Source: Acarospora socialis (lineage: Eukaryota; Ascomycota; Lecanoromycetes; Acarosporales; Acarosporaceae). Taken from it: a stretch of 64,000 nt of DNA. Positions 19,773 through 53,666 of this stretch are shown here, in pieces. Made by a program: the position numbers and the translations under genes. Every line of letters starts with the position of its first letter. Position 1 is the stretch's first letter. Where the stretch lies: the NCBI GenBank assembly GCA_025617375.2, contig JAMYGW020000012.1, forward strand, positions 372,001-436,000, read 5' to 3'. The notes under the pieces are model-generated. The model worked only from the letters and a program-made list of their open reading frames with translations, was not told where the DNA came from and made no database searches.

Positions 19773-20130
19773 GTCATCGAGCCCAAGTGGCTCACCCACC
19801 CCACTGACCTAGCCGTCGCCGTCGCCGGATACAAGCGCGTGCGGCAGCTCTTCAACACTACCGTCATGCAGCCCGTGCTGATCGGAGGCGATACTTCCCC
19901 GGTACGGACACGGTTGACACTGACGACCACATCCTGGACATGATCAAGAAGTTGTTCAACACCGTGTACCATGCGTCGTCGACGTGTGCGATGGGCAAGG
20001 AGGGGATCGGAATGCGGTCGTAGATTCCAAGGCGAGAGTCTTTGGCGTCAAGGGACTGAGGGTCGTCGATGCCTCGGCGTTTCCCTCCCTACCGCCTAGA
20101 CATCCGGTGGCGAACGGTCTGTACGTACTT
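19773..20130 (+). pseudogene. GMC oxidoreductase C-terminal relic
   Basis: Fragments of the C-terminal domain of a fungal GMC (glucose-methanol-choline) FAD oxidoreductase are readable in three frames: IEPKWLTHPTDL with VAVAGYKRVRQLF at 19773-19870, then DTDDHILDMIKK and the active-site region YHASSTCAMGK near 19915-20000, then NAVVDSKARVFGVKGLRVV at about 20010-20070 and ASAFPSLPPRHP to 20105. At least two frame changes and the absence of the FAD-binding N-terminal half mark it as dead. The His of HASSTCAMGK is the family's active-site segment. It sits 0.9 kb from the laccase, so it may be a lost member of the same cluster. Confidence 0.8.
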
Positions 20131-21036
20131 CCTCTCCGTATTCAAGTTCTCTATCGTCCAAGGTATTCCGCAAATCATAATGCTGACGAGACTGTGTGGG
20201 TGCGCTCGCGGAGAAGATTGCCAGCGACATCGAGGGCGATTGTTGACCGTTACTTATCAATCATTGAGATCTTCAGTTGTAGAGGGTTATATTCCATTGG
20301 GTTTTCTTGTTTTCACTTCTGCAGACTTCTGTCTTAATCTCAGCCTGTGTGCAATATAGTCAACAGAGACGGACACGGCCCAGGCCACTTGTCAGATTTC
20401 GTGGCGCATAGTAGCAAAGTATATGCGGCATATTACTCTACACAATCTTCAAGCTTTTTGGCATTTAAAGAGTATATAAGTATTCTGCAAAACTCAGAAC
20501 ACCTGAGGGCGAGAGACCAGTGTCGAGTAGGTGAATTATCCATGAGTAAATAAACAAGCCATATTTGAAGATGTCTAAGTTGTTATATGGGCCGAATGTG
20601 AACCGAAAAGGAAAGCTATGCAAGCTTACGTGCATTGAGATTGCCTTATGGGACCCTTGCCTCGCGGGACAGGGTTTCACGTGCAGAACCCGGGGACTAC
20701 CTTAGTGTTGCAAGGATATGCCGTGTTGTGGTTGTCAGAATCTTGTTCGTGTAACCTGATCTTGTCAAACATAAACCTCAGCCCTTAGGTACGTACTGAG
20801 AGCACAGGTAGTGGGAGGTGGAAAGATGTGGAGCAACACGGAAAAAATGAGATGCCTCAAAAAGCCCCAAGCTGAAATTCGATGATTATAAATGACTGAC
20901 TATTTTTTATATGGGTCCACATATACACCGCATCCAAATCCAGCCCCAATTTGCCACCTAAGTACATGGAAATTAAATGTGCTTGCCAACTGACCGCCTA
21001 CTCATACATCCACACTGCTTTTTCGTCTCTTCCCCT
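20131..21036. other. Intergenic, 3' of the laccase
   Basis: About 0.9 kb between the GMC relic and the laccase stop. No gene or repeat recognised. Confidence 0.5.
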
Positions 21037-23352
21037 CTAAACACCACTGTCGATCTGGTCAACCACATGCGATTGGCTCCACGCATCCCAGTCTTTGCAC
21101 GTCTGCGCCATGACGTATGGAATCTCCATTTGGGTGATCTCCGTCGGCCGCTCCAGGATGTTCATCGTGTAACCCATACTGGCGTGCCAGGCGATATGGC
21201 AGTGGTATGGCCACACGCCGGGATTGTCCGCGTTGATCTGGACCACGAGGTGTCCGTACCGGCGGAGCATGTGCGTGTCCCGCCGTATCGGATTGGAGGG
21301 ATTGATCAGAGTGCGGCCGTCCCAGTAACCGGGTCCTTCAGCTAAGACGAACTGCAATCCTCGTGCGTCAGTATCGATGCTGAATTGCAGAACACGGATG
21401 TAGCAACGAGGGCTGCTTACCATGTTGTGGCCATGAAAGTGCATCGGATGAGCGGATTGGTACTTGTTGTTCATTACGATGCGGATCGTCTTGTTGCTGC
21501 CGACGTTGAAGACGTTCCATTCCGGGTCAGGGTAGGAGAAGTTCTTCTGGTTGGCGAGCAGCAGGATCGGATTGTTGTAGTTGGCTCGTTGGGTTTGATT
21601 GTTCATGATCCAGACGTGATGGCCAGTGCTGTTGGTCAACAGGTCAATCTCGATCGTCTCGGTCGTGTCCGGGCTTGGATCTGCTGCGATAGGGAAGGCG
21701 GGGATGGTCTGCTCTAAATCATCCTAGAAAAAAGTGAGCTCGTCGGTGACTCGATCCGGAGACTTCTGCTCGTGGAGAGGTCTTCTCAAAGATTCTCAGG
21801 ATCATGGAACTTACATTTTTGCAGAGGTTAGCCTTTTGGTCGGCCGCGATGACGGCTGCGCTGCTTGTACTGTTTGGCTGCGCATAGTCGCCAGCTTTCT
21901 CGTAAAGAATAACTCCTAGACCTTTAGGTGATGTCGTAACGGAGCAGTTAAGGGAGATTGTCGACCGCATCCAAAAAGAATCTGCAGGTTTCCCGGTGGC
22001 TTTGACCAAGACATCGGTCCGCTGGCCCACGCCTAAGGTTATCACCTCCGTATCGTAAGGCTTTACAGGTGTGAAGTCGTTTGCAATGACTTGTAGAGAA
22101 TGCCCGTCGATGCTGAAGTGAACCAGGGCTGCGGCGCCCGCATTGATCAAGCGTAGACGGTGCTTCTTCCCACTTGTGAACCGAAATTTGGAGAGACCGG
22201 CGTTCGAAACGCATGTACTATTGCGAGCAGCCATGGAGCAATTGTAATTGTTCTTGCCGTTAATCAAGCTGTTGTCAGAAGCTGGAACATACACGTTGAA
22301 GTCTGGACTAGGTCCAGCAACATCTTCCAGGACGTCGCGATAGTTCCTATGATAATAGTCTCCAAGGATGACAGGGCCCAAGTCAATATCATATGGAGCA
22401 TGCTTCGGTCCGTGGATGATAATAGCACCAAACACGCCGGCGGTATATTGCGCAGAGTAGTGTGAGTGGTACCAGGAAGTCCCGTACATGTCGGCCTTGA
22501 AGCGGTAGGTGAAAGAGGCACCGGGAGCTATAGGGCACTGTGAGATGCTCGGGATACCGTCGAACCATTGTGTCCCTTTTTGGAGAATGCCATGCCAGTG
22601 CATAGACGTTCCATCTTCCGGTCCAGTTATGTTATTGTGAACGGTGACTTGGATTGTGTCTCCCCAGTTGGCTTCGATCATAGGTCCGGGAAATTGTCCG
22701 TTTATGAATATGCCGCTCTTCGCTGTTCTGAAATGAGCGTCTTGAGTATGTGGACAGTGGGAAAAAGGTAGCTCATACCATAACCATCAGGAGCCAAAAC
22801 CCCTCGGGCTACGGTGAAGTCATAATATCGCGTTACCCCTGTAGAGGGTACGTCTGTATACGGATTGCAGTTTTCCACATTCCGCCGCCCCCAGGGAGAG
22901 CCATCAGGTAGAGGCTAATCAAATCAGCTTGGGTTGTTCAAATGGGAGGCATAAATGCTTAAGGCAAGCACAAGGAGACAACACTCACATTTGTGGTAAG
23001 AAACTCCGGTAGAGCTGGGTGGTCCAACGTGCCCAAGACTGATAGTCTAATCGTAATGATAGAGGTCAGCTTTCTGGTATGCCAAACGGCCGCGAAGAAT
23101 TGAATCTTTAAGACCTCGAGGCATAAGTAATAAGAGTAACAGCAACGCAGCATGGGATTAGAAGAGATGCCCTGCAAAGAGAGTACGGATCTATATAAAC
23201 TTGAACATACCCATTTGTCTGCTTTTGTGAAAGAGCCGATATGATCCTATAGAGCACATGATGAGACTTTGTGATGCAGTATACCGACTCGTCAAGGGAG
23301 CAACGTACCTTGCCAACCCCAACACAACGGTGAAGTTCTTGAGGAACACCAT
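21037..23352 (-). CDS. Secreted laccase-type multicopper oxidase
   Basis: Seven exons: 23352-23309, 23246-23211, 23046-22989, 22914-22779, 22722-21815, 21723-21421, 21351-21037; 599 residues. The N-terminus MVFLKNFTVVLGLARIISA is a signal peptide. All four copper signatures are present: HWHG near residue 133, WYHSHYSAQY near 175, HPMHFHGHN near 486 and HCHIAWHASMG near 545. The mature region begins near the NPYTD.P.TG motif, followed by YYDFTVARG. The last residues DSGV match the C-terminal plug of ascomycete laccases. It oxidises phenols with reduction of O2 to water. By eye the T1 axial position (10 after the Cys) is Tyr instead of the usual Leu, Phe or Met. Its neighbour is an isocyanide synthase on the same strand, suggesting phenol coupling in a pathway, but lignin, pigment or melanin roles are possible. 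Confidence 0.92.
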
Positions 23353-24550
23353 GATGAGTCAGCTTGAGGTTATACAAGCACTAGCGCGATCTCCGACTTA
23401 CAGGAAAGCAGGTCCCATCTGACCGCTGCATATATATATGTAACCCGACATTAAGATCTGGCTTCAAGAACGCCTCCGCTTGCAGCGGGAATATGTGATG
23501 CCAACGTGGGCGTCGACAGTCCTCCGATCGCCGTTTTTAGCAACAAATGCAATTACATGTCCGCTGAGCTCTGCCGTCCTTCAGCGCATCGTGTCTCTCA
23601 CCTCATCATGTCTTGGCGTCCATGTGTCTCATAACCACCGGTCTGGGCCCGAGGCTACTTTGTGACTGGTATGCCTTGAAGCTGAAGCCAGGAACATTAA
23701 TATCCCAGTCGACACGAGGAAGGACTGCCTTGCCGCATCTATAACACGGACCAGCCCTACTGCACACTCGGCAAAGAGGCTGCATTGCATGCAAACACGG
23801 CAGAAAGCGACGGTGCATATACGGCAAGAGTGCTGCGTTGTTTTTACGTTCTAATTACACGAACGAGGGCCGCAATGCATACACGGCTGAAAGGCTTGCC
23901 AAGACCATACGGCCCCCAAGTACGAGCAAAACATTCTGCCTGCTCCAGTCACCTGCCCTTGTTCCTGGTCGTCGCTAAGGTGAGGGTCAGGAGTGAAATG
24001 GCTGTGCTGATGGGTATTCGCTCTGACATACCTATTCGGTCCAAGTGGTCGAACCCTATAAGTGGCGATTGACGGCGTTGCCTGTACCCCTGATGATCAT
24101 CGGGAGAAGCTTTCCACGTGTTCGTATTCAATTTAGGGCATCCCGCAACGACTCCGTTCTAGACGGGCCTGCGAGGCAACCACGATGAGGTCGCGATCTC
24201 AGCCTCGGAGAACCTCCTCCTACCCTTTGGCGTGCCACGCGGAGCACAGCATTAGGAGGCAGGGGAGGTGGCAGGGGAGCTTCAGGGCAAAGCTGATCTT
24301 TCGTTTTACGTACTGGAAGCTCAACCTCGTTCTAGATCTATACTCATTGGCTCTTGCGTGATTTCGATATGTGGAGAGGTTTTCTCTATTATGCAAAAAA
24401 CAAAGTCTGATTCTAAGCTACTTCAACGTCTTAATAGATACAATCTATAGTGGTGAATCTGCTAAAATTATGTTGGCTTCAATCGAATTGACTTTGCTCC
24501 TCCGACGCCCGCATTCCGATGGGGTCTACTGAGTACGAGTGCTTCTGCCG
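23353..24550. other. Laccase upstream region
   Basis: About 1.2 kb between the laccase start and the stop of the isocyanide synthase, both on minus. It contains four spaced copies of a CGGC-centred motif (listed). GGAGCACA at 24241-24248 matches 7 of 8 bases of the reverse of the copper-regulator site TGTGCTCA, which is weak. No gene seen. Confidence 0.5.
23761..23895 (+). repeat. Four imperfect 20-bp CGGC motif repeats
   Basis: Copies start at 23761 (TGCACACTCGGCAAAGAGGC), 23790 (TGCAAACACGGCAGAAAGC), 23814 (TGCATATACGGCAAGAGTGC) and 23876 (TGCATACACGGCTGAAAGGC). Shared core TGCA, then CGGC, then a purine-rich tail. All four are on the same strand, 24-62 bp apart, 410-540 bp upstream of the laccase ATG. 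They could bind a Zn2Cys6 factor (CGG core) or be decayed tandem copies. Confidence 0.6.
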
Positions 24551-26485
24551 CTACGCTGACGCCGCCAAGACAGCGTTCGCAGAATCTGCAAAACCTCGAA
24601 CATTGACAGGTTGGAGTTGAGCGAGCTGCCGCAATTTGTCTAGTTGATCTGGGGTTAAGACCTGGAGTCCCTCAGTACTGGCTCGAGGCCGAACAAGCAC
24701 TCCGCTCGGGTACTGGGGCTCGAATACTACGTTAGCGTCTTCCCAGTCCCACAGCTCCGATTTCTCGCGATAGTAGTATGGTCGATCGTTGTGGTAGATG
24801 AGGTTGTGCGTATCGCGGACGTCCTTGACATGGACCATCCGGTAAGCCCCGTCGATGCCCACCGCGATTGTGCAGTGCCATGGGGTTCGGGGGAATACAC
24901 CATTCTCCTGGGGAATCAGCGGAATGGAAAGTTTGACGCCGCCGCTTGATGGATGAATGGAGAGGCGAACGTAGGCACTACACTTTGCCTGGATGAGTTT
25001 GGTGAAGGACTGTAATCGCTCAAGTTAGTGTGCTGCTGTAAAACCATACGATGTTGGATGCTCATGGTAAAGATGGTACACAACTGGGTCTGCTATGCGT
25101 AGACATCTCACGCAACCTACCTCTGCCCGGATCATCATCCCCATAGCAACTTTCTTTACGCACTTTCTGAACTGTTGACCGCTCTGAGCCTTCTTCACAA
25201 CGGGGCTATACCTATCGTTCACAAAGTGAGTCTCGAATATTTTGTTCGGCGCGGGAAGCCTTACTTGAGATCTGTTTCCAAGAAGCGAATGAATCCGCGG
25301 TAGGTCAACAAGGTATCTTCATCAGATTGGATCATCTCCCGGACTTCGTCTTCGGACCTGCCGTATTGTTCCAATAGAGCCTTGCGAGAATCGGCTGTCA
25401 TTGACATATACATATCTTTCGTCATCGTTTCGCCAGCTGTCAACCCCATGAGGTCCATGAGTCGAAGCAACTTGATGTTGGTTGAGCCTTCCCGGGCTGC
25501 CATCTTCATCAAGCACTCGCTGTAGGCCCAGGTGTCTTCGTCCGGGATACCCACAAGGTCTGTGTAATTGCGTTAGAAGGCTATCGTTGGTTCTGCATTG
25601 TCTGGAGACTTACCATCAAACACCAGTCCATCGGTCGCGATGGTCAGTTCGGCTCCCTTTGGATATACCTTCTCAATATCCTTGCAGAGACTATTGAGCC
25701 TCGCTAAGGCCAATTCTTCGCCCAGGTCAGGCAGACAGCCATTGACTTTCTCCGTCCTATTTATCTGTCTGAAATTCAGCGCAACGATCATGGAAGAGCT
25801 AGTGACGATCTTACGCTTTTCCATGGGAAAGAGGGCATGATCATCTTGATGGGCTCATCGAGCTCCACTTGCTTCTCAACCCTTGCAACGAACATGGCTT
25901 TCCCAACCCAGGCCCCGCTGCTTGCTGTGTCTGGTCCAGCATGGAGATGCTGCCCGTATCGTTGAATTACATCCAGGATGTCATGTGCAAGTCGTGTTGC
26001 TGGCTTTTCCGAGACCGGTGAAAGCTCCAGTGGAATCTCTGAGATTAACGACTGTAAGTGAGTTGTATAGACTCGGCTATCACGCAGTGATATATGGGGA
26101 GGTTCATACCTTTGACCTCGACCACCGGTGCTTTGGGCTCTGCCACATGGAGAGACAAGATCTCCTTCGCCGGTTCTAGAGATTCCACGGGTTCTGTTGG
26201 CGGCGTCGACGGTATGGGCGTGGCTGGGGCGGTCAGCTCCGCTGAGGCCTCGAGCTTGACCGGCAATCCATCCTTTTGCTTGGTGTCTTGGTAGGTCGCC
26301 TCGTGACCGTAGAGCTCGTGGATTGCAGCTGAAGCCACAGTCGACAAAGACCCAATGCTTTGCTGCCATTTGAGAAGAGCATGAAGGTGACGCTCGAGGA
26401 TGGATAGTCGGGCCTCGAGCGCTGAATTGTAGGAGAGGCTAGCCATGTCTCGAGAAGCACGGTTGACAGCAATGTCGTCAAGCAT
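24551..26485 (-). CDS. Dit1/PvcA-family isocyanide synthase
   Basis: Six exons: 26485-26110, 26038-25815, 25764-25614, 25559-25265, 25211-25121, 25009-24551; 531 residues. The start chosen is the first ATG (MLDDIAV). Residues 1-125 are an unusual extension, part coiled-coil, part Pro/Glu/Thr-rich. The rest matches the pyoverdine/dityrosine family (PF05141): IMPSFPWKS, CLPDLGEELALARL, ATDGLVFDDLVGIPDEDTW, YRGFIRFLETDL, then KVAMGMMIRAE, KLSIPLIP and TPWHC. Enzymes of this family convert the amine of an amino acid (often Tyr or Trp) to an isocyanide using ribulose-5-phosphate as carbon donor; yeast Dit1 makes the formyl-tyrosine precursor of dityrosine. No P450 (the usual Dit2 partner) or dioxygenase is fused or adjacent. 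Neighbours are a laccase and a divergent MFS exporter. The first acceptor (TCTCAG) is chosen because it alone keeps the frame. Confidence 0.88.
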
Positions 26486-27309
26486 GGCGAGTAACACTTG
26501 AGTGTGTGTATGTAACGAGTCCGAGCAGGCAAGGCAATAGAGGCTCGCTATTTAAGGAAGAGGTGCTACATGGTGGCTAGGGCAAAGGTAACGCCAAGAA
26601 GATACCGTGTTCTCGCTGAAGGACATTTCCATGGTCTCAGCCGCAAGAAAGAGACTCGGACACAGCCGATCAATGAAACACGGAAAAGAAACGGTGAAAG
26701 TCAGGGGCATAATCTTAGCCCTAGTTCTCACTAGGTAAGCAATTCGAGAAGAAAGCCCACTCCACCACCGAAAGGGGAGATTGTACGCGAATCAAATCGA
26801 ACTGCTCGTTCACTAACTTTCGTGTTCGGCAGGCTGACAGAATTACGACGAGGCTTTCCGCATCCTGCAAGTAACCCCTAGTCTTTGATGCGCGCTCCAC
26901 ATCTGCAGAGATCAAGCACGGGTTGTTCATAACAAAGTTCGATATTCAGCGTACTCGGTTACATGTAGCGAAATCTTGCTTTTATTTTTATCTTACCGTT
27001 TGATTTACCGCATCGTGCGCGTGGCGTGCAGCGTCAGATATCAGCACTTGAGAATGACTCTTCGATATCTTGGTGGAGCTGATTTGACCCTTCTTATATC
27101 GGAGGACTCGGGAGATCTTGCCAACGTGGCACAGAGAGCTGCATGGAAGTCTCGCATCCGGTGGAGGTGCGCTCAGAATAAGTCACCCACCTCAATTAGA
27201 AGCCAGTGCTACGCCCATTCTTGATCCTTACAACTGCTAAATGTCATGAGTCTTGCTTGAAGCCGCTGTTTCCATCGAAATCCCTCAAATATTGTTAGAA
27301 AATACAAGT
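26486..27309. other. Bidirectional promoter of isocyanide synthase and MFS gene
   Basis: 824 bp between divergent starts, the usual arrangement of co-regulated cluster genes. No binding site could be assigned with confidence. Confidence 0.55.
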
Positions 27310-28759
27310 ATGTCGTTCCCGTTACAAGGAGGCCGGCGAGTCTCGAAAGAGAGTGATGAAGTTGAGATCTTCAACAATGTGATTGAAGTCACCGAGCCTG
27401 CGCCTGACGGTGGACTGATTGCCTGGTCTCAAGTGCTTGTCAGTCATCTGCTTGTTGTGAATGGGTTTGGCTATCTCTCTTCTTTCGGTCTCTTCGAGTC
27501 GTATTGGATCACTGAACTGGATCGTTCTGCGTCCGCCGTCTCCTGGGTCGGTTCCATGCAGATGTTCCTTCTTTTCTTCGTCGGTACACTCTCTGGTCGA
27601 GCCATGGACGCCGGATTCTTTCGCTCCCTCATCTACGCCGGATGTGCGCTGCAACTACTGGGCACTTTTACGACTTCCGTTTGCAAGCAATACTGGCAGC
27701 TTTTCCTCTCTCAAGGGATCGTGCAAGGTTTTGGAAATGGCCTCCTGTTCACCCCAGCAGTGGCACTGGTCTCGACGTACTTTGCGAGAAAGAGGGCATT
27801 TGCGTTGGGGTTTGCCGCGTGCGGTGCACCCGTCGGAGGAATGATCTTTCCTGTTGTACGTTCAAGCTCAACACTCCCTTGGCAGCTCCGAACATGTTCT
27901 CCTTCTCGAGTGGACACTCTGTATCTCGGAGGCCAAGCTGACAAGTCTGGGAGGTTAGATTGCGCGCCAACTCGCGCCTACCGTTGGGTTTGCTTGGGCA
28001 ACGCGCGTGATGGGGTTTGTGATGTTGTTCAATACTGGTATCATCATCGCGCTCGCTCGACCACGTCCTGCGTCGAGGATCAGAGGACCTATCATGGAGT
28101 GGAGCGCCTTCCGTGAATTACCTTATTCGTTATTTGCAATTGGCATTTTCCTCACACTCTGGGGTGTCTATTTCGCTTACTATTATGTACGTACGGCTCT
28201 CTCCGATATTGTGGAGCAGGGCCGGAATTAAGAAGGCTGACATTCAGCGATGTAACCACAGGTCACAACTTTCGGAAACGAAGTTATCCATGTCTCTTCG
28301 TCAACCTCACTCACACTCTTGATGATCTTGAATGGCGTCGGCATTCCGGGACGACTTATTCCAGCCTTCGTTGCGGATAAGTATTTTGGTCCATTCAACA
28401 CGCTGATTCCATTCGTCACGTTCGCTGCCATCCTCCTCCTCTGCTGGATTAGAATCTCGAGCTTTGGAGGTTTTATAGCCTTTGTGATCGTGTATGGAAT
28501 CTGCTCCAACGCCGTCCAAACGCTCTTTCCATCCACCTTATCCAGTCTCACGACGGACTTGACAAAGATGGGCACCCGCGTCGGGATGGTGTTTACAATC
28601 GTCAGCGTTGCGTGCCTGACAGGCCCGCCGATCGCGGGAGCACTGATCGACTTGAAGAGAGGAGATTTCCTCTATGCACAGATCTTTGGCGGCGTGACGG
28701 TACTACTGGGAGCGGCAACGTTATTGGCAGCTCGTATCGTACAGCTACGTAAGTCTTAA
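27310..28759 (+). CDS. MFS transporter, monocarboxylate (MCT/SLC16) type
   Basis: Three exons, 27310-27855, 27959-28186 and 28262-28759; 423 residues with about 12 membrane segments. The N-terminal PDGGLIAWSQVLVSHLL matches the fungal MCT signature (PDGGWGWVV type), followed by NGFGYLSSFGLFESYW and GTLSGRAMDAGFFR. The central loop is short and the second half starts with FGNEVIHVSSSTSLTLLMILN and GIPGRLIPAFVADKYFG. Such fungal proteins move monocarboxylates or, in clusters, export metabolites. It diverges from the isocyanide synthase, so export of its product is a reasonable guess. Both introns use GTACGT donors. Confidence 0.9.
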
Positions 28760-30104
28760 AGCTTGCGGTCGCTTTTGAGAGGAGAGGATGAAAAGTAAGA
28801 TGTTGGCAGTACGAGTACGAGTAGAACAGATTCGTGTTAGGTAGTGAAAATAAACTTTCTTTAGCTTCCGTGACTACTAAGAATGGAACCACTTAAGCGC
28901 GCGAAACGTGCGGGGGCTTCGGGCCAGCCCGTATTCAGGTTTCGACTAGTGTGGGGATGGGGTGAACTTTCTCTTACCTAAGTAATAGGGTTCAATCCTG
29001 GTATATACCCTAACCCCGTACCTTACCGTACCTTCCCTTAGCCTATGAGGCTCATCAATGTCTCGGAGGGAAGGGAATCAGATCCTTCGAACATCTCGAA
29101 TGTTGTACATTATGCAGGTTACCACGAAAGTATTCATTCATCGCAAGGGTCCGCATGAGCTCTATTCAGCCCATTAGCCCGCGACCGAGGACTTGGTTGG
29201 CTAATGGACCCCAAACGCCGACCCGTCCCGGCAGCGCATCAACGGTGTCACTCGAAATGGGGGATGGTATTCACAGTTAGTTCAAGCCTTCGTCTTACTC
29301 AGCTCTATTTAAACAGGCTACTCGTGTAACACCTGACTCCAATCAGAGGCTCGAATCCTGACACAACCCTAGCGTTGCCGTAGGGCTGTGAATCCTACTC
29401 TGATGAAAAAATCTGACACTCGTAAGCTACGGATCGTTGTTTCAACTCTTACCAGTCATCATTCACTTCTACGTACGTGCTGCTCATATCCACTGACATT
29501 AGTGTTCAGTGTACGCCAACTCCACAGCCATCCTCTCCCGCATTGTGACGCAGAGCGTCGGAGCGGTGCCGACTGTGTTTAGCAAAGGTACAGTTGTCAT
29601 CTGTGTTCTTGTTCGTCGACTGATTGAGGCCGGCTACCTAGCTGAATGCTTTGGCTCTTCTTAGCACCTCTTGTATTACGGCGCAATCATCGGAGATGAA
29701 AAACACATAGCGGCGAGGCGTTGCCGGCAGCATAGGAGATGTTCGAGTGAAGGCGGGACACTTACCAACTATGTCCTTGTTCATCGATTAAGGCTGAAGG
29801 CGGCGTCGCAGGATCACTCGTGCGCAGCGGCGGCTTCTTACTAATTCATCTCTTGAGGCGCCGAATCGAAGAATAACGGCCGAACAGCGATGGAGTATTG
29901 CAGCAAGATGGGCAAGTCAAGGGGCTCCCTGTCACCAGTGCCACTGTCGAGAAGCGCCAAATCGGAGATGAATGACCGACAGCGGTGGGCCATTGTGGCA
30001 AGCATGGACAGGCGAAGAAGCAGGACGACATAAAGCTCTTCCACATATCGCTCACTTCCACTTGCTTGTAACGTCCGGTTTAGCTATCGGATTACAAACC
30101 CAAC
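28760..30104. other. Intergenic between MFS and SMP-30-like gene
   Basis: About 1.3 kb on plus. The last 0.45 kb holds a degenerate, roughly 90-bp periodic repeat (listed). No intact gene seen. Confidence 0.5.
29680..30015. repeat. Degenerate repeat with about 90-bp period
   Basis: Three related segments of about 60 bp start at 29680, 29858 and 29954. Each has a GCGCMRAATC start, a GGAGATGAA- or GAAGAATAA-like block, an AGCGR(T/C)GG block, and then TTGYRGCAAG- or GGCAGCAT-like sequence. Spacing is 178 and 96 bp, as if one unit between the first two had decayed. They may be relics of a coding repeat (for example ankyrin, read on minus) or an old minisatellite. Confidence 0.4.
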
Positions 30105-31486
30105 ATGGCCATACCTTCATTGCTTCTTGGACTTTTATACTGCTTTTTCACGAGGATTGTTTGTTCCAACAGCACCGCTACGACCCCGGTAGCTGCCGTC
30201 TGTGGACCTTCAACAGCGAACATTGTCTGCATCAATCGTTACGGCTCTTTGCTCCCACCGTCCTACTCACGAGACCCAGACCCATTGGTCGGCTATGCCG
30301 GTACAGTCGTGCCGGACGACCCATCGTGGGGTTTAGTCTCCAAAGCCGATTTTGTCGTGTTCGACCGCCAACGAGGCCTGGATCTTCTAGGCGGAGCACC
30401 GCGAATCCAGCACAAATATGTACCCATACTCAACGTCATTCATGAAGCGCCCATCTACGTGCCACACTTGAACAAGCTCTTCGTGACCCAGGATGGACCT
30501 CCGGGAAACCTGACCAATCTTGTCATCGATCTCCATGAGGATCCACCGACCGCGAAGTCTTTCGTGACCGATCCGCCCATCTACCAGCCTACCGGAGGAA
30601 TCCTGCACGACGGCATGATATACTGGGCTGTCCAGGGGAACAACGTGTCCTTATCCGATGGCCTCAAACAGCGCCCTGGAATCGTTCGGGTGGATCCCGC
30701 AACCCTGAAAGCGGAATGGCTGATGAACAGCTACTACGGCTTTTGGTACGCGGGCCTCAACGACCTGACCGTCGACTCCCTCGGTGACGTCTGGTTCACC
30801 GACAGCGGTACGTACCCATTCCACCGCTCTTCAAGACCCAAACTCATGGTCTCAACTAATCGCCCGATACAGACTACTCCTACGGCCTCGGCCTTTCGGA
30901 CCACTTCCCCCAAAACCAACTCGCCACCTACCGCCTCCGCCCCTCCACCGGCGAAGTTGTCATGGTCGAAAACACGGCCCAGCGCCCCAACGGCATCACC
31001 TTCTCTCGCGACGGCAAAACCCTCTACCTGTGCGACAGCGGCCTCGAGACGGCGGGGTCCATCGCCAGCCAAGGCAAAAACGATTCCTACGCCTACCCGA
31101 TCCGCATCGACTTCACGTCGACCAACAAGCGCAACATCTACGCCTTCGACGTCAACCGGCCCGCGGGAGCGCCTGGCAGAAGTGGAAGCGGAAACCCCTA
31201 CCTCACCAATAAACGCACCCTCTTCCAGTCCCTCGAGGGCAGCCCCGACGGCATCAAGCTCGCTGCGAACGGGTACCTGGTTGTTGCAACGGCCCTCTCG
31301 AACGGTGTCGATATTCTAGATCCCTATGGCTCGCCGATCGCCCGCATCCAGGCTACCCATCCCGTCGAGAACATTGCGTTTACAGGACCGGAGCTCAGGA
31401 CGCTGTTTCTTGTGGGCATTGGTGGTATCACGAGGGTGCAGTGGGATCTTGCGGGCCCGGATCCGGATAAGTTTTTTGTCGGGTGA
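30105..31486 (+). CDS. Secreted SMP-30/gluconolactonase-like protein
   Basis: Two exons, 30105-30807 and 30873-31486; 438 residues. The N-terminal MAIPSLLLGLLYCFFTRIVCS is a signal peptide. The mature part is a six-bladed beta-propeller of the SMP-30/gluconolactonase/LRE type: GLNDLTVDSLGDVWFTDS near residue 220-235, RPNGITFSRDGKTLYLCDS near 270, and SPDGIKLAANGYLVVA near 350. In the family these positions supply Asn and Asp metal ligands. Members hydrolyse lactones or related esters with a divalent metal. The substrate is not deducible. It is next in line after the MFS gene and may belong to the same cluster. Several N-glycosylation sequons (NLT, NVS) suit secretion. Confidence 0.85.
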
Positions 31487-32639
31487 AGCGAAGTCTGGTG
31501 TAGGGAAGTTGGGGTTTCGGTAGGAAGGAAGGGGAAATGGTTTTTTTTTTCGGCGGAGTGGAGTTATTAGATGCGCGCCGGGAGATATGAATGGTGTAGA
31601 GTAGTCGCTGAAATACATAGGCGGAGAGCGTGCAAGTTGCTTTCGTACCGTTAGACCACTTCATAGGTGGAACTGTGCGTTCCGTCTGGGAACACAGACT
31701 TTGTGTCGGTAAAAGTCGAAGAGAACTGGGCTTAACTCGAACATTCATTGTCAAGCACTCAAGACACAGACTAGCCAAATGGATGCCCTATAAATGCCCT
31801 ACGCTATAAACCTACTATATCAATGCGGCCGATCCTTACATAAGCCCATGGGCCCTTGCTAGGTAATAAGTTCCCGCAGGGGAAACCCTAATTGTGGGGA
31901 ATTGTGATCCACCGACTTCGTACCGTAACGAGTAACCATCGATCCTGTTGGTCGAAGGGTACCCTCCATACTCCCTGAAAACAGATTCTATGCTGCATTT
32001 CCAGAGTATGGATGCTACGAGCATGACCGGTCGAGCTACACTCGTACGAGAGAGTGAGAAGCCGTTTCAAGGATTCAGCCCTGTCAGGTACGGACGTAGT
32101 CCGCAGGGATGTGAATATCGGGAATCATGCTTACACGACCATATCTCATCTTGTGTGATCTCCAGGTTACAAATGCCAGCAGATATTGTGCCGTGTCTTG
32201 TATGAATCCAGAAAATGATGTTTTTCCTCAGTGATACCTTGTGCTTCCTTTCTTTACCGTTAAAAGCGCGAGTTTCCTTTCTGCGTGGTTTGCCCTTCTT
32301 CTCTTCACGGTCTCCAATCTCCTAGGTCGACATCATCTCTCACCGTCAAAATCTTTCTTTTGATTCTTGAGACCCTCCCCTGCGGTCAACATCTTGCGTC
32401 CACTTTCAAGATGTCTGGTCCAATCTTCTCAGGTGCTTGACATGGAGCACTCCGACAAGATTACTAACCCTACCTTTAAGCGGCTGCTCTCTCAGACAAA
32501 CCCATTCGTCTATTCAGAAAGCCAAGTACCCCATTCCCAAGAAGATATAGCCTCACCTAGGAAGGTCCAGGGCTTTTCTGTACAGTTCTCCACCACTCTT
32601 CTTCGGTCACGAGCAGAACTGACTGGCATCCTTAGTGGT
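31487..32639. other. Intergenic before the broken MFS gene
   Basis: About 1.1 kb. Any 5' part of the broken transporter upstream of 32640 is not recognisable. No other feature seen. Confidence 0.45.
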
Positions 32640-34660
32640 TCCTCGTTGTCGTTGGGATTTTATCCTCCATTTCCCTTTATTCACTCGAAATACAATAGTG
32701 GCAGATACCATTCCGGTGTGTTAGTCCCTATGAGGGCTCATTCAGCACCACACTGATGACTGTTTAGCCCATCGTCCATGACTTCCAAAGTGTTGACAAC
32801 ATTGGATGGCTATCAGTCGGGTGAGTTGCTCCTTCGTGAACACTGGCCTTGGTTACAGCAAAGGTCCACTGAGAACTCTCTATATTCTGCTCTTTCTTCG
32901 AGCTCAGCACGACTCGAGCGAGGATATACCTCGGAGCTGGCGCTCACACTACTCATGCAATAATGGAAAGCTGTCATATCTCTGTGATGAGGTCTTTAAT
33001 GCTTTTGTATGCGAAGATCCACTTCGTCTCTTGATTTGATATGCGCCCAATGCTGATCTGAGATCTCTAGCTTTGTTATTGGAGGCGTAGCTGTGATCAT
33101 GCCGCTCTGAAAAGCATATGGCTTGCTCAACGCAAAGTGGCTGTATATTGAATCAGTGGTCATCTTCCTGGCAGCGTCAGCGCTTTGCGGCGCGGCCCAT
33201 AACATTCAAGCTGAGATTGTGGGTCGTTTGTTTGCCGGCGCATCTGGTATCGGGATGTATATTGGCGTAATGACTCTCCTCTCGGTCAATACCTTAGAAT
33301 TTTGCGCCCTACTTATCTCTGTCTCGTGTAAGTCAGCTTTCGGCCATGCTCATCATACTACTTGACGACAACTAGAATATTTAACTCCTTGTAGTACATG
33401 AGACAAAGAACTAACGTGCTGTAGAGGTCTAATATGGGGAATTGGCATCGTCTTAGGACCGGTCGTCGGTGGTGCTTTCGAACGGGTGACCTGGCGATGG
33501 GCCTTTTATATCAACATCATCATCGGCGCCGTTTTCGCTCCGGTATACATCTTCCTGCTGCCTTTTCAACCCTTCGCCCGGCAAACCTCTCTCGCAAAGG
33601 TTCGGTGGGGTTGACTATGTTGGGGCCATCCTCAGCATCGCCGCACTTATCACCATCGTCATGGCCATCAACTTTGGTGGTACGCTCTATGCTTGGAACA
33701 GCGGCCAGATTGTTGCTCTCTTCGTCGTCAGCAAAACTTTTCTTTCTTGACGACGCCTATCAATCGCATGTCCCCGATGCATTTTCGCGAAAACAAGGAA
33801 GCAATCCTTCTATTCGTCCTGGTGGCCGCTGGCAACACGCAGCCCTTCATCCCAATCTATTACCTTCCCAATCCACTTTCAGTTCACCCGCGGCGACTCC
33901 GCCCTCGAATCGGCAGTCCGTCTGCTCCCATTGATCTTCCTTTGAGCGCGACGATCCTTGTGAATGGCTTTCCGATGTCCAAGCTCGGTTACTACCAGCC
34001 GTGGTACATGGCCGGCGCCGCCTTGGCTCTCGTGGCCACCGCTTTGCTGTGTGAGTTCACCCCCTCTCCCACCGAAGCGAACACACTGACCTTCTCCTTC
34101 GACAGCACGAATCGACTCCGAGACATCGATCGCCAACATCTACGGTTTCGAGGTTCTGCTCGGTATCGGAACCGGAGCCTTCGTCCAATCCGGCTACACG
34201 GTAATTCAAGCCGTCGTCGACCCACTCGCCATGTGTACACCATCAGCTTCATGATGATCGTAGGCACCGCCTCCTCCAACCCTTCCCGAGACGAATTCGC
34301 TATTGACGAAGCTTCTTCCCAGCGCAAATCGGCGGCATCACCCTCGGCCTCGCCATCGCCAGCGCCGTCTTCATCAACGGCGCCAGGAACGACCTGCAAG
34401 CCCTCCTCCCCGACGTCCCTCGCTCCATCATTCAACAAGCCATCTCCGGCACGAGCAGCACGTTTATGAATTCGTTGTCCGCTGCCACGAAGGAGAGGGC
34501 GCTGGATATCATCGCCAATAACACGCGCAAGGTGTAAGTTCCGAACTTGTTGAGGCCCGCTTCACGGTCCGGGGACTGATCGGACGTGGCTGACTGAGAT
34601 GACTATAGGTTGATCCCTGCCTACGTCGCTGCGGCCGCGGCGCTTGTCGGGTCGGAGTTT
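32640..34660 (+). pseudogene. Broken drug-efflux-type MFS transporter (DHA family)
   Basis: Pieces of a 12-14-segment MFS efflux pump of the fungal toxin-efflux type are readable in order but in shifting frames: RNTIVADTIP near 32687, PIVHDFQSVDNIGWLSVG at about 32768-32820, LNAKWLYIESVVIFLAASA near 33124-33180, GRLFAGASGIGMYIG, then GIGIVLGPVVGGAF and WRWAFYINIIIGA near 33440-33540, VDYVGAILSIAALITIVM, ENKEAILLFVLVAAGNTQPF, and a C-terminal part with GVGTGAF-like and IANIYGFEVLLGIG stretches to about 34660. At least four frame changes and internal stops make it non-functional, although some GT-AG introns are probably still visible (for example 33330-33424). It is the right edge of the island and likely a lost second exporter. 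Confidence 0.8.
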
Positions 34661-35154: not shown

Positions 35155-38100
35155 TTATGATGCTTCATCACCACTGCCATCATCCGGCAACCGAACCATC
35201 CTCCCAGTTCCCCCTGCCATCGCCCTCCGCTCATCATACCTCTCAAACACGTCCTCGAGATCCACATGAACCCTCAGCCCCTTCTCCCCCAACACGTCAT
35301 AAACCTTCCTCAGCTCCTCAAACCCGAGAACATCCCTCAAGTGCGTAAACGCAAGCAAATAGAACTCCTTCGCCCACGGACACGCCCGCATCCCACGAAA
35401 GAACACGTCCGTAGCACGCCGCATCTCGCTCCGCCCACGCTCAAAGAGGACATACAGTTTCCACAGCGCGGGATTTGAGCCGCCGCTACGGCTGGCGACG
35501 GCGTTTTCGAAGTTGGCGCGGACGGAGTGGGTGTTGGAGCCGAGGTGGATGCTGCGGTGAAGCTCGGTCCAGATGGAGAATAGCCAGGCTGTGATGGTAG
35601 GTTGCGTGGCGTTGGTGTTGGTGCTGTTGTTGTTGAGGACGAGGGTTTGCATGATGGAGCGGACGCGGTCGTCGATGCGGAAGCGGGCTTCGTTGAGGGC
35701 GTAGAGGGAGAGGAAGATGGTGTTGGTGGGGAAGAGGCGGATGCTCTGGGCGAGTTCAGAGCGGATGAGGGCGGGTTTGAAGAAGTGGGTGTGCGTCATG
35801 TGGTGGTGCAATAGTCTTGCTTTGGCTTGGTGGAGGAGCTCGTGTGTTGGGGAGGTGGTGAGGTTGCGGGCGGCGAGGGTCGATGAGGCTTGTTGAAAGG
35901 TGTCTAGCGCGGCTGAAAGATCACTATCTTGCGTGAGGTATATGAAGAGAGCTAGACACTCCGCATATAGCATTGCATGATCAGTGCGACCAGCTGAGAG
36001 CATGTGTTCACGGCCATCTGTGAGGGCCTAGTAGATCGTTAGGACATTTCAGTATGGAGATTAGGCACGCTTACCCTTTTCACCCTGAGCAACGCCGCCG
36101 CACTTGGATTAGCGGGACTTGTCGCACCACCATGTGTAAGTGAATGGGATTCGTGGCTCGTTGTGCTTTCGGGCAAAGTCAGTAAGTGGTGCATGGCTGA
36201 TTCAAGATCTCCTTTTGCAAGACATTCCCACACCCATGTGCGCCAAAGCAAAATGTTGTCCTGCTGTGCCTCTTGGATAAATGTCTTGCTCATACTAATA
36301 GCAGTACCGATGACATGATCTACTCCGGTCTTGTTCCCGGTTCGAGCTTCGAGAAGAGCATATGCGTTGTAAAGTCGAAGACTTGTTGTATGTTTCTTTA
36401 GCAGACTTTTGGCAAGCTTCCTGGTGCCGTCGGGATCGTTTGCTAACTCAAGGGCAAGATAGTACTCTGCCAAATCCTCACCACCAATCCCAATACTGAC
36501 GAGCATTCTCAGAGCGCGCCGTATCAAAGCCTGCTCAACGGGCCCCTTGTCACCCTCGTATCTAGCGGTCCATGCGTCAAACACGGAGAACCATCTGCCT
36601 TGTTCTGCGAAGAGACTGTCTGGTGATATTAGAAGATGGCGCCCTGGAAAATCGAACGGACTCTTCTTGCGAGCGTTAGCACTCTGTGCGGTGTCTGTGT
36701 CCTGAATCCCGGTATTGGAGCCCCGAGCAGCATCTACACGACTGGTGCGCAATTCCCAGCGACCGAGGAAGAAATCAGATTCTTCCAAAGCATCGTTCAT
36801 GATCAAGGGATCTGTTCGCCAACCTAATCCTGAGCTGGTCGCTGATTCTGATAAGAAAGCGGGCAGGCGACAGAAAGCTAGAAAAGCGTTCAACAGCTCA
36901 GATCGGAGCTTTGAGCTCGCAGTATGAAACAGGCAATCCTGTACGTCTAGAAATAACACAACCCTGAATGGATCATCCTCTTGAATGTCATCAACAGTAC
37001 GCGCTGGACTGCGTGACTCAAGTGCGTTTAGGCTCTCAGAGTGCACCCAGCTGTCAAAGATTCTTTCATCATTGACTGGAATATTGGGTGAATCTGTTCT
37101 AGGAGCTGCTGTAACTCCACCAGTCAGGGTCCATGACTCCCATCCCTTCGCATCTTCTTCTCCGATACGCGGTACTTCACTCTCCCAAAACTCTTCGAAG
37201 GAAGACAAGCAGTCTCTGCGTGTTGTGAGGTCTTGAGCATCACTCATTGACCGGCTAAACTGCTTCGGCATGAAAAAGTTGAACTCGAGTAACGCTTGCC
37301 ATAATCCCACTGCATGCTCCGTATATCCAGACTCGCGCATGAAAAGGGTTAGTCGAAGGACTATATAAATCCGGACCATATCTATGTCATGACCGGAGAG
37401 TGACGACCTAACTTTAGTCAAGGTGGCCGATTTCAGGACTCGGAAGCAGTCGAGAAAAGTTGACCGACAGTCTTCGTACTCAAAGGTCATAAAGCTGGTT
37501 TGCTTGAAGTCAAGGTACTTGGTCCACAGTCCAATGAACCCAGGATACTCCTCCAGTACGCTATTCCATCGGTTGCCCAGCTTTTTGGTGTCCCAGATTT
37601 TCGATCCTTCTTCCATCATGCCAAGGACCACACGTTCCAAGCAATCTTTTTTGGCAACTTTCTCCAAAGCTTTTTCGTACATTGACAGCTTGACCTCTGC
37701 AATGCTCCTTTCCTCTGCGTTAGTTAATTTGTGTCGTCCTCCACGAGTACTGGCACTAAGAAGGCGATCTTGATGACTGATAAGGTCAAACCAAGCATCG
37801 ACATTTGTAGGATGACTATCCACGCGCCGTGACAACTCAATGCTATGCTGTCGGGTGGTTTCATCAATAGAAACCATTCGATGCGCTCCATGTTCAGAGG
37901 TAGCAGTGTCCATGACATACTCTAAGTCTTCATCGGCAGGCCTCTCTCGAGATTTGGCTTTCCCCTCAATCGACCTATAATGGTTCCCATGCTCTTCGTC
38001 GGAAGATTCAGATACTGAGGATGATTGGCTTCTTTCGCCAAGCTCGCGTTTTCGTTTCCTTGACTGAGATAGTGGAACGAAGTCACTTCCACATTTCAGG

Positions 38101-38772
38101 CCTGGATCAGGAGACCCAATCCGTCGTATGCGCAACTCTTTTGTAAGACCCAGCTCGCTCTTTGACAAGAGATGTCGTTCACGCCTACCAGTTCGATTCG
38201 AATCACGGTTGCTGACGACTAAACCATTGTCATTGCTCGCCGTCCTATCGATCTTGTTGTCTTGGGAAAGTCCAATAATGCTACCAGCGCCGGTCCGAAG
38301 GTAAGGAGGAATAACATAACGGTGGATCGTTCCGTACGTGATATTGTGCGGGTCACCCAGCCTGTCCGTAACATACAAATTTCGTGTAGTGTTCCGATCT
38401 TTCACCGGCGTTTCCTCGTGTGACTTTGATTGAATGGATGAGCGGTGTCTATGCTCTTTGCGCCGTGAGCTGTCATGACCAGGGCGTCTCGAATATTTGC
38501 TGCTTCGTCGCTCTTGGTAGTGAGCGGTTTTCTCCGGCCCCTCTCGGGACCCCCTCGATGCAAGTGAGAGCTCATCGTCATTAGTACCTTTCAAGACCTG
38601 GTTCTTCTCGGGTATGCCGTTACTGTGAGGAAGTAAGTTCGCCTTTGGTCGGAAGCTGGCAAACTTTGGCACAGTAGCCTTTCTTGTCTGCTCAAAGCTC
38701 GTTTAGCTAGAGCATCGCAGACCACAAATAAAAACCTATAATCGTTCGTACCTGTAAGCCGTCTTCTTCCAT
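35155..38772 (-). CDS. NRDE-2 family RNA-processing/silencing protein
   Basis: Three exons: 38772-38752 (21 nt, MEEDGLQ), 38687-36075 and 36027-35155; 1,168 residues. The tiny first exon supplies the only in-frame ATG; without it the frame opens at a GTG. After a basic, disordered N-terminus (with SR-like RRS and KEHRHRS stretches) comes the NRDE-2 core beginning near VDAWFDLISHQD (about residue 306), followed by HAT/TPR-like helical repeats to the C-terminus. The family links nuclear RNAi, heterochromatin and the exosome (NRDE-2 in worms, Nrl1 in fission yeast with Mtl1, NRDE2 in human). It diverges from UTP10 over 239 bp. Confidence 0.9.
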
Positions 38773-53148: not shown

Positions 53149-53666
53149 ATATAGATACTTTGATTGTAGTAAAATAGATCGTTTTCGAGTGATAGAGCGA
53201 GGAGATTTGATAGGTTAGGATACGAAGGATTCTGGAGTATTAAGGTACCTAGTGTCACAGATTGCCCTGAGGGCCTCGAATGGACCATTGGGTTGGTTCT
53301 AACCGTGTTGGGAGTGCGGCGAGAGGTGGAAAGACAGAGACGTTCAACGATGGAACAGCAAACCTTACAAAATCGGGACGCTCTCTTCCCATTTAGGGTA
53401 GCTAAGCGAGAAAGCCAATCAAACGCGAAAGTGCAGGATCTGGGGAAGTTGGCGTTTTCGTGACGCGCCATTCCCGTCGAAGCTACCAGAGCCTGGTCGA
53501 ATCGCAAGGATGAGAAAGCGATTGGAATGATGAGACCACGTCAGCTGACATAAGGCACTGTTGTCTACAAGGACTATATCATGAGCATTGATCGGGTACT
53601 CAAGAGCTTAGCTATTTCTCCACCTCCTGCAACAGCGTATGCCTGCTCCAGCATTGTGTGCATTCG
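53149..53666. other. Upstream region of the RNR-inhibitor gene
   Basis: About 0.5 kb. At 53456-53467 TTTCGTGACGCG joins an SCB-like site (reverse CACGAAA) to an MCB-like ACGCG, about 200 bp before the next ATG. Confidence 0.45.
53456..53467. promoter_or_regulatory. Putative SCB/MCB-like G1/S element
   Basis: TTTCGTGACGCG reads as the reverse of CACGAAA overlapping ACGCG. It lies upstream of an RNR-inhibitor-like gene, where G1/S control would make sense. Short motifs, so weak. Confidence 0.3.

What the first reader, a model, noticed from the sequence alone, without database searches (positions are those of the whole stretch)
19773..34660. Putative isocyanide biosynthetic island with laccase, lactonase-like enzyme and exporters
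Seen: laccase (-), Dit1/PvcA-type isocyanide synthase (-), divergent MFS transporter (+), secreted SMP-30-like protein (+), with a decayed GMC oxidoreductase and a decayed efflux pump at the edges, all between housekeeping genes RDH54 and NRDE2. Known: fungal isocyanide synthases usually sit in clusters with a P450, a dioxygenase fusion or NRPS domains. Inference: this is a minimal or eroded cluster in which a laccase rather than a P450 tailors an isocyanide phenol. That pairing is not one I know to be described. Both copper oxidase and isocyanide (a copper ligand) suggest a copper link.
Basis: partly seen in the sequence, partly recalled or inferred. Interest (0 to 1): 0.8.

Follow-up and report, generated by a model that had tools for sequence, protein, structure and literature searches.

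The report
Conserved fungal isocyanide–laccase gene cluster
Four neighbouring fungal genes – one that should make a reactive, copper-binding isocyanide, a transporter, and two enzymes that look secreted (a laccase and a lactonase-like propeller) – form a cluster whose three enzyme genes recur together in distantly related fungi, and I found no report of what it makes.

Summary
In detail: intact isocyanide synthase (ICS), laccase, MFS transporter and SMP-30-like genes lie between housekeeping genes, with remnants of a GMC oxidoreductase and an MFS pump outside them. 'Minimal or eroded' does not hold. ICS, laccase and SMP-30 homologues recur together: 33 contigs carry at least two of the three, 11 all three. 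All 19 ICS-linked laccases and the window's fall in one 38-row clade, none among the other 83 rows. Where ordered locus tags exist on one contig, exactly one gene separates ICS from SMP-30 in 6 of 6 genomes, the place the MFS holds here; Vezdaea has the window's whole order. So the quartet looks like the unit, and only the edges are lost. The laccase clade has Tyr at the copper-axial position in 17 of 38 rows versus 0 of 83. Best reading: the monodomain ICS makes an amino-acid isonitrile (tyrosine most likely), the MFS exports it, the dedicated laccase oxidises it outside the cell, and SMP-30 acts on a product. Linkage and folds are shown; substrate, order and product are inferred. The copper link is undecided. 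Nickles et al. 2023 already list multicopper oxidases among core genes of individual ICS cluster families, so the pairing is not wholly new.

The parts
24551..26485 (-). Monodomain isocyanide synthase (531 aa; exons 26485-26110, 26038-25815, 25764-25614, 25559-25265, 25211-25121, 25009-24551)
   Evidence: PF05141 E 6.9e-92, no other domain; one locus in the genome; PDB relatives 9dhm, 9dh4, 3e59; 46 of 46 alignment-invariant residues kept; model of homologue P0001 matches PIsnA and PvcA, TM by target 0.88-0.91
21037..23352 (-). Laccase (599 aa, 6 introns), hydrophobic N-terminus, C-terminus DSGV
   Evidence: Cu-oxidase, _2, _3; nearest solved 3sqr laccase; copper ligands kept and Tyr at Cys+10; in the ICS-linked clade
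27310..28759 (+). MFS transporter (423 aa, 3 exons; 12 hydropathy peaks), divergent from ICS
   Evidence: Model; MFS_1 E 4.8e-26; hydropathy; conservation inferred from position only (locus tags); its homologues were not searched
30105..31486 (+). SMP-30/gluconolactonase-like beta-propeller (438 aa, 1 intron), hydrophobic N-terminus
   Evidence: SGL E 4e-22; model of homologue P0243 matches lactonases, DFPase, SMP30; E, N, N, D set present
26486..27309 (.). Divergent promoter region of ICS and MFS (824 bp)
   Evidence: Gene models; no TGTGCTCA or TTTGCTCA
23761..23889 (+). Four copies of TGCANAYWCGGCWR upstream of the laccase
   Evidence: 23 matches in the whole genome, 4 of them here, 13 for the reversed control pattern. 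The pattern was derived from these copies
20005..20112 (+). Remnant of a GMC oxidoreductase C-terminal domain
   Evidence: PF05199 E 6.9e-11 on one piece, residues 28-63 of the frame from 19924
33402..34534 (+). Probable remnant of an MFS efflux-type transporter, broken across frames
   Evidence: One piece (33402-33611) hits MFS_1 at E 5.8e-8, just under the curated cut-off; the other 4 pieces, searched apart, give nothing over a cut-off

Best explanation
A conserved four-gene isocyanide cluster that works across the cell surface. Inferred steps: (1) the monodomain ICS joins an amino acid, most likely L-tyrosine, to a C1 unit from ribulose-5-phosphate and gives the alpha-carboxy isonitrile (no fused or linked dioxygenase was found to desaturate it); (2) the MFS protein exports it; (3) the dedicated laccase, which looks secreted, oxidises the phenol by one electron and couples it to itself or to wall or environmental phenols, the job proposed for a P450 (Dit2, XanG) in known fungal pathways; (4) the SMP-30-type enzyme hydrolyses or rearranges a lactone- or ester-like product. 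Shown: gene content, intactness, family or fold, metal-site residues, co-conservation of ICS, laccase and SMP-30, and a laccase clade of its own. Not shown: substrate, transport direction, enzyme order, product, expression.
For: 19 of 120 listed ICS relatives share a contig with one of 120 listed laccases; of 24 named organisms in both lists, 18 have them on one contig (counted). All 19 linked laccases plus the window's lie in one clade of 38, 0 in the other 83 (quick tree, SH-aLRT 100). SMP-30: 25 of 97 hits (21 of 35 named) lie on a contig with a listed ICS or laccase; 33 contigs hold at least 2 of 3 families, 11 all 3. Ordered locus tags on one contig: ICS and SMP-30 exactly two apart in 6 of 6 (Candelina, Letrouitia transgressa, Venustampulla, Vezdaea, Xylaria grammica, X. 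curta); ICS and laccase 1 to 5 apart in 6 of 6 (Diplodia seriata, Vezdaea, two Thermothelomyces, Letrouitia transgressa, Candelina). Matching trees: Mantel r 0.88 for 20 ICS-laccase pairs, 0.75 for 21 ICS-SMP-30 pairs; Polychaeton and Apiospora, of different classes (recalled), are sisters in both the ICS and the laccase tree. The ICS fold matches PIsnA, whose PDB titles name complexes with L-tyrosine and an isonitrile product. Laccase-clade residues near the copper motifs in sequence: Tyr482 38 of 38 versus 0 of 83, Arg526 97% versus 0. Hydrophobic N-termini on the window's laccase and SMP-30, not on its ICS.
Against: Substrate untested; a valine-type isonitrile (as from CrmA) would give the laccase no phenol. 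No expression data. MFS conservation rests on position, not on its sequence. Signal scores are crude: only 9 of 19 linked laccases and 19 of 25 linked SMP-30 pass my threshold, against 2 of 19 ICS. In 6 of 24 named organisms the two hits lie on different contigs; Cudoniella's laccase and SMP-30 tags (g5849, g13217) are far apart on short contigs. 0 of 16 listed Colletotrichum ICS are linked to a listed laccase. Linkage is read from equal contig lengths and only 10 of the 33 contigs are under 100 kb. The Mantel correlations would also follow from shared species descent. A review passage says an isocyanide inhibits a copper laccase, so a laccase is an odd partner. No word of 9 bases or more is shared by the three promoters.
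Confidence: 0.5

Rival explanations
1. Copper scavenging: the isocyanide is a secreted chalkophore and the laccase is its client, or oxidises Cu(I) bound to it; the MFS moves the ligand or complex.
For: Passages of PMC6514546 describe isocyanide chalkophores and propose that xanthocillins feed copper enzymes including laccases; crm and xan clusters respond to copper (PMC5974471 passages). Two copper-fist matches in the genome. Three 7-base MacA-like cores, of 24 in the window, lie between ICS and laccase.
Against: No TGTGCTCA or TTTGCTCA in any cluster promoter, and neither 7-base core upstream of ICS/MFS; no copper transporter or reductase among the island ORFs scanned; SMP-30 has no role in this reading. 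The Ctr control is mixed and does not settle which motif this fungus uses.
Confidence: 0.17
2. Self-protection: the isocyanide is a weapon against copper oxidases of rivals or hosts, and the clade's altered laccase is a tolerant stand-in or destroys the compound outside the cell; SMP-30 likewise detoxifies.
For: Review passage (PMC6514546): rhabduscin, a bacterial isocyanide, inhibits an insect copper laccase. In the 121 rows compared, Tyr at the axial position occurs only in the ICS-linked laccase clade, 17 of 38.
Against: The genome has five other Cu-oxidase_3 loci that would stay unprotected; any clade has some residues of its own; 13 of the 38 clade members have the usual Leu; no tolerance data.
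Confidence: 0.13
3. Wall or spore chemistry in the manner of yeast dityrosine: the product is a structural polymer laid down outside the cell, not a diffusible metabolite.
For: Two enzymes that look secreted, a transporter and a wide distribution would fit a structural role; Dit1 with the P450 Dit2 makes the yeast wall precursor (passages of PMC5974471; section of PMC10153163).
Against: By similarity the ICS stands with fungal ICS-TauD proteins (36-45% identity) rather than with bacterial ones (24-27% for homologue P0001), whereas dit-type ICS are reported closer to bacterial ones. No Dit1 sequence was compared.
Confidence: 0.12
4. Neighbours by chance: the ICS is real and the other genes are unrelated.
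For: No expression data and no long shared promoter word.
Against: Recurrence in many distant fungi with similar order.
Confidence: 0.03

Closest known systems
ICS cluster families with a multicopper-oxidase core gene (Nickles et al. 2023, PMC10153163)
   Same: ICS backbone with a multicopper oxidase as core gene; monodomain ICS families with a broad, discontinuous distribution are reported (sections read)
   Different: Which family holds the oxidase is in a figure not held here; SMP-30 does not occur in the main text; no product or function given in the sections read. Equating this cluster with one of those families is my guess
xan cluster of Aspergillus fumigatus (xanthocillin)
   Same: ICS product with oxidative coupling proposed as the next step (passages)
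   Different: There a P450 (XanG) is proposed to couple, and the ICS is of the two-domain ICS-TauD kind; here a monodomain ICS and a laccase
dit1/dit2 (yeast dityrosine)
   Same: Small pathway, ICS without dioxygenase fusion, oxidation, wall precursor
   Different: P450 Dit2 instead of laccase; probably a different ICS lineage
crm cluster (CrmA, valine isonitrile)
   Same: Fungal isocyanide cluster
   Different: ICS-NRPS-like backbone with predicted copper and iron transporters; copper-starvation induced (passages)
Ascomycete laccases (e.g. 3sqr)
   Same: Copper ligands, three Cu-oxidase domains, DSG-type C-terminus
   Different: Axial Tyr in the window and in 17 of 38 of the clade; clade-specific residues near the copper motifs
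SMP-30 / gluconolactonase / DFPase six-bladed propellers
   Same: Fold and the four metal-site residues
   Different: Homologue P0243 has 13-21% identity to the solved ones listed; 34 of 35 named hits are fungal, one bacterial at E 3.7e-4

Membership tests
Isocyanide synthase (PF05141) | DIT1_PvcA domain with conserved core | tested here: met
   E 6.9e-92; 46 of 46 invariant residues; fold match of a homologue
Isocyanide synthase (PF05141) | Makes an isonitrile from an amino acid | not testable with these tools
   Needs an enzyme assay
Fungal monodomain ICS cluster | ICS without TauD or NRPS domain, with neighbouring genes conserved across genomes | tested here: met
   One domain only; linkage
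Fungal monodomain ICS cluster | Co-regulation of the clustered genes | tested here: inconclusive
   Only promoter words compared, none of 9 bases or more shared; no expression data
dit superfamily | Co-localised dit2-type P450 | tested here: not met
   No P450 among the window ORFs scanned with Pfam; not every short ORF was scanned
dit superfamily | ICS in the dit clade | tested here: inconclusive
   Similarity points to the other fungal clade; no Dit1 sequence was compared
xan-type cluster | ICS-TauD fusion plus P450 | tested here: not met
   none of the 13 TauD matches lies in the window
crm-type cluster | ICS-NRPS-like backbone | tested here: not met
ICS family with multicopper-oxidase core (Nickles 2023) | Same orthologous gene set | tested here: inconclusive
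   Sections read; figures not held, journal version not held
Laccase | Copper-ligand motifs | tested here: met
   All kept in the window's protein, and in nearly all of the 121 rows
SMP-30-type lactonase | Six-bladed propeller with E, N, N, D metal site | tested here: met
   Fold of homologue; E116, N221, N276, D355 in the order of DFPase E21, N120, N175, D229 (mutants named), 55 residues between the two Asn in both, the last gap longer (79 versus 54); all four in the window's protein
SMP-30-type lactonase | Lactone hydrolysis | not testable with these tools
   Needs an assay
MFS exporter | Exports the cluster's product | not testable with these tools
   MFS_1 and 12 hydropathy peaks only

The most novel reading that the evidence does not exclude
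A deeply conserved, uncharacterised fungal pathway in which an isocyanide is finished outside the cell: a secreted laccase with a remodelled type-1 copper site, able to work on a compound class that poisons other copper oxidases, couples exported tyrosine isonitrile into a copper-binding, wall-linked isocyanide polymer or dimer, with a dedicated SMP-30 propeller as the last enzyme. As far as my searches show it would be the first isocyanide pathway tailored by a laccase, and the ICS-laccase pair would have passed between lineages as one block (Polychaeton and Apiospora are sisters in both trees).
Probability: 0.2. Interest if true: 0.85.

Novelty: new variant of a known kind. Interest (0 to 1): 0.6.

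Why it matters
Fungal isocyanide clusters are numerous (3,800 in 3,300 genomes in the abstract of PMC10153163) and few have known products. A four-gene unit kept in similar order in distant Ascomycota is small enough to express whole in a laboratory host, and it has a copper enzyme where known pathways have a P450, although at least one isocyanide is said to inhibit a copper laccase. That contradiction is directly testable and bears on how fungi handle isocyanides, copper and phenol coupling at the cell surface.

Tried and rejected
Copper motifs: TGTGCTCA (MacA site, confirmed in a passage of PMC6514546) and TTTGCTCA (recalled) are absent from the cluster promoters. A recalled AceA-like pattern, HTHNNGCTGD, has 56 matches in the window and 1, 2 and 2 in the ICS/MFS, laccase and SMP-30 promoters, close to what that density gives. 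Control on the genome's own three Ctr genes, about 1.5 kb each side: TGTGCTCA at none, TTTGCTCA twice at one, TGTGCTC twice at another, none of these at the third. So the test decides nothing. Shared promoter words: one 8-mer (and its complement) in all three promoters, no 9- or 10-mer. Rfam: nothing at gathering scores in the window. RIP or foreign composition: no RIP; only the SMP-30 gene is richer in G+C. Substrate from structure: no paper on PIsnA held and no coordinates available, so no pocket analysis. Limits of that route: lists cut at 120 of 229 ICS and 120 of 1814 laccase hits, so absence cannot be shown; 4 of the 33 contigs come from unnamed sources; tags counted as ordered exclude Cryphonectria (JGI protein numbers 220966, 266287, 15980 on one contig); the Thermothelomyces numbers (1091/1092, 4209/4210) may also be protein numbers. 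Geoglossum simile (7090, 5113) and Caeruleum (818, 3671) have tags for both ICS and laccase but on different contigs; their listed ICS is the TauD type. Rows left out or labelled by hand: the SMP-30 tree used only hits of 380 aa or more (59 rows with the window's of 98); one of the 13 rows labelled TauD fusion (P0103) has no TauD in its listed Pfam. Trees are quick searches with SH-aLRT only; the program warned of long branches. Papers: searches for ICS with laccase, multicopper oxidase, SMP-30 or lactonase turned up no study of this gene set in the titles, abstract openings and passages I saw; most listed papers were not opened. Passages of PMC11457142, PMC12711211 and PMC12113139 gave nothing on it.
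Full report
What is there. The window is part of contig C12 of a 31.1-Mb genome in 38 contigs; by its genes and their nearest named relatives it is from an ascomycete. Between an SNF2/Helicase_C gene (15214-17745) and NRDE-2 (36042-38702) lie four intact genes: laccase (minus, 23352-21037), ICS (minus, 26485-24551), MFS (plus, 27310-28759) and an SMP-30-like protein (plus, 30105-31486). The exon models translate without internal stops. Outside them are a GMC-oxidoreductase scrap and what looks like a broken MFS pump. G+C is ordinary apart from a richer SMP-30 gene, and there is no RIP signal.

Single proteins. The ICS has one PF05141 domain (E 6.9e-92), found at one locus in the genome. A homologue's model (P0001, mean pLDDT 80.8) matches PvcA and PIsnA (TM by target 0.88-0.91); the PDB titles state complexes of PIsnA with L-tyrosine and with an isonitrile product. 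All 46 residues invariant in a 36-protein alignment are present in the window's protein. A homologue of the SMP-30-like protein (P0243, pLDDT 87.5) has the lactonase/DFPase propeller fold. Its E116 and D355 are invariant in 44 sequences and N221 and N276 nearly so; they run in the order of the DFPase residues E21, N120, N175, D229 named in a PDB title, with 55 residues between the two Asn in both and a longer last gap (79 versus 54). The window's protein has all four. The laccase keeps its copper motifs, with DSGV at the end.

Recurrence elsewhere. Three database searches gave 229 ICS, 1814 laccase and 97 SMP-30 hits, of which 120, 120 and 97 were listed. Using equality of contig length, 19 of 120 ICS entries share a contig with a listed laccase. 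Of 24 named organisms present in both lists, 18 have the pair on one contig. The 6 exceptions are Penicillium olsonii, Xylaria grammica, Neofusicoccum parvum, Diplodia corticola, Geoglossum simile and Caeruleum heppii; the last two have the TauD-fused ICS in the list. With SMP-30 added, 33 contigs (4 from unnamed sources) carry at least two of the families and 11 all three; 25 of 97 SMP-30 entries, 21 of 35 named ones, have a listed partner on the contig. Ten of the 33 contigs are shorter than 100 kb, which bounds the distance there.

Gene order. Ordered locus tags sharpen this: Vezdaea has SMP-30 4223, one gene, ICS 4225, laccase 4226, the window's order. ICS and SMP-30 are two tags apart in 6 of 6 such cases; ICS and laccase are one to five apart in 6 of 6, four of them adjacent. 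These are cases on one contig; Cryphonectria (unordered JGI numbers), Geoglossum and Caeruleum (different contigs) are not in the count, and Cudoniella's laccase and SMP-30 tags are far apart. In the window the single gene between ICS and SMP-30 is the MFS; its conservation elsewhere is an inference from position, since no search was left for it.

Trees. In a quick tree of 121 laccases all 19 linked ones and the window's lie in a 38-row clade with SH-aLRT 100; none is among the other 83. In the ICS tree the linked rows and the rows labelled TauD fusion are cleanly separated. Tree distances agree (Mantel r 0.88 for 20 ICS-laccase pairs, 0.75 for 21 ICS-SMP-30 pairs). Shared species descent alone would give some of this, but Polychaeton and Apiospora, of different classes (recalled), are sisters in both trees, which fits transfer of the pair as a unit; both sit on rather long branches in the ICS tree. 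In the SMP-30 tree (59 rows) the linked rows are not more clustered than shuffles (93 of 500 as low). That would be expected if nearly the whole family is linked, but it is no support.

A changed laccase. Against the other 83 rows, the clade has Tyr at the position ten after the type-1 cysteine in 17 of 38 rows (Leu 13, Phe 5, Met 2, gap 1) versus 0 of 83 (Leu 74); among the 20 linked rows with the window's, 8 have Tyr. That this is the axial position is recalled from solved laccases. Other clade-specific residues lie near the copper motifs in sequence (Tyr482 38 of 38 versus 0; Arg526 97% versus 0) and elsewhere too. Any clade has some residues of its own, so this suggests a changed active site and does not prove one.

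Mechanism. From papers seen in part: monodomain, TauD-fused and NRPS-like ICS exist in about equal shares, MFS genes are in about 60% of ICS clusters and P450s in 34.6% (PMC10153163, sections read); a P450 is proposed for oxidative dimerisation in xan and dit (PMC5974471, passages); a tyrosine-related isonitrile was found in the culture of Phycomyces, a fungus with a Dit1-like protein, and called a stable natural product (PMC13005658, passages). From these I infer that the monodomain ICS gives an alpha-carboxy isonitrile that the MFS exports and the laccase oxidises, with SMP-30 acting on a product. Copper scavenging and self-protection are the main rivals; a review passage says that rhabduscin inhibits an insect copper laccase (PMC6514546), which makes the pairing a real puzzle. 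Promoter evidence decides nothing.

Verdict. That the cluster is real and conserved I put at about 0.93; the laccase-tailoring mechanism at about 0.5. It is a new variant of a known kind, fungal ICS clusters, partly foreshadowed by one phrase on multicopper oxidases in Nickles et al. 2023.

Noticed in passing
window 23761-23889: Four copies of a 14-base word, TGCANAYWCGGCWR, within 129 bases upstream of the laccase; the other 19 genome matches are scattered singly, and the reversed control pattern has 13. It may be a binding-site array; no ICS/MFS or SMP-30 promoter site is among the top 14 scores in the window.
   Followed up: partly
P0159/P0167 (laccases), P0031/P0088 (ICS): Polychaeton and Apiospora are sisters in both the ICS and laccase trees, suggesting that the pair moved together between distant fungi.
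   Followed up: partly
P0297-P0324: Most of these are 240-330-aa proteins from unnamed sources that match about half of the SMP-30 protein at 59-85% identity without a Pfam domain; probably single exons called as genes, so the family may be commoner in the environment than the named hits show.
   Followed up: no
laccase clade, position Cys+10: The axial residue varies among Tyr, Phe, Leu and Met inside one clade, while it is Leu in 74 of 83 other rows: a natural series for redox tuning.
   Followed up: partly
window 29587-30005: Two diverged direct repeats (45-nt and 33-nt copies, 71% and 76% alike) in the intergenic stretch before the SMP-30 gene.
   Followed up: no
window 53592-54407: A ribonucleotide-reductase-inhibitor domain protein (RNR_inhib, E 5.9e-23) next to an Hsp70-like protein; ordinary neighbours, not examined.
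   Followed up: no
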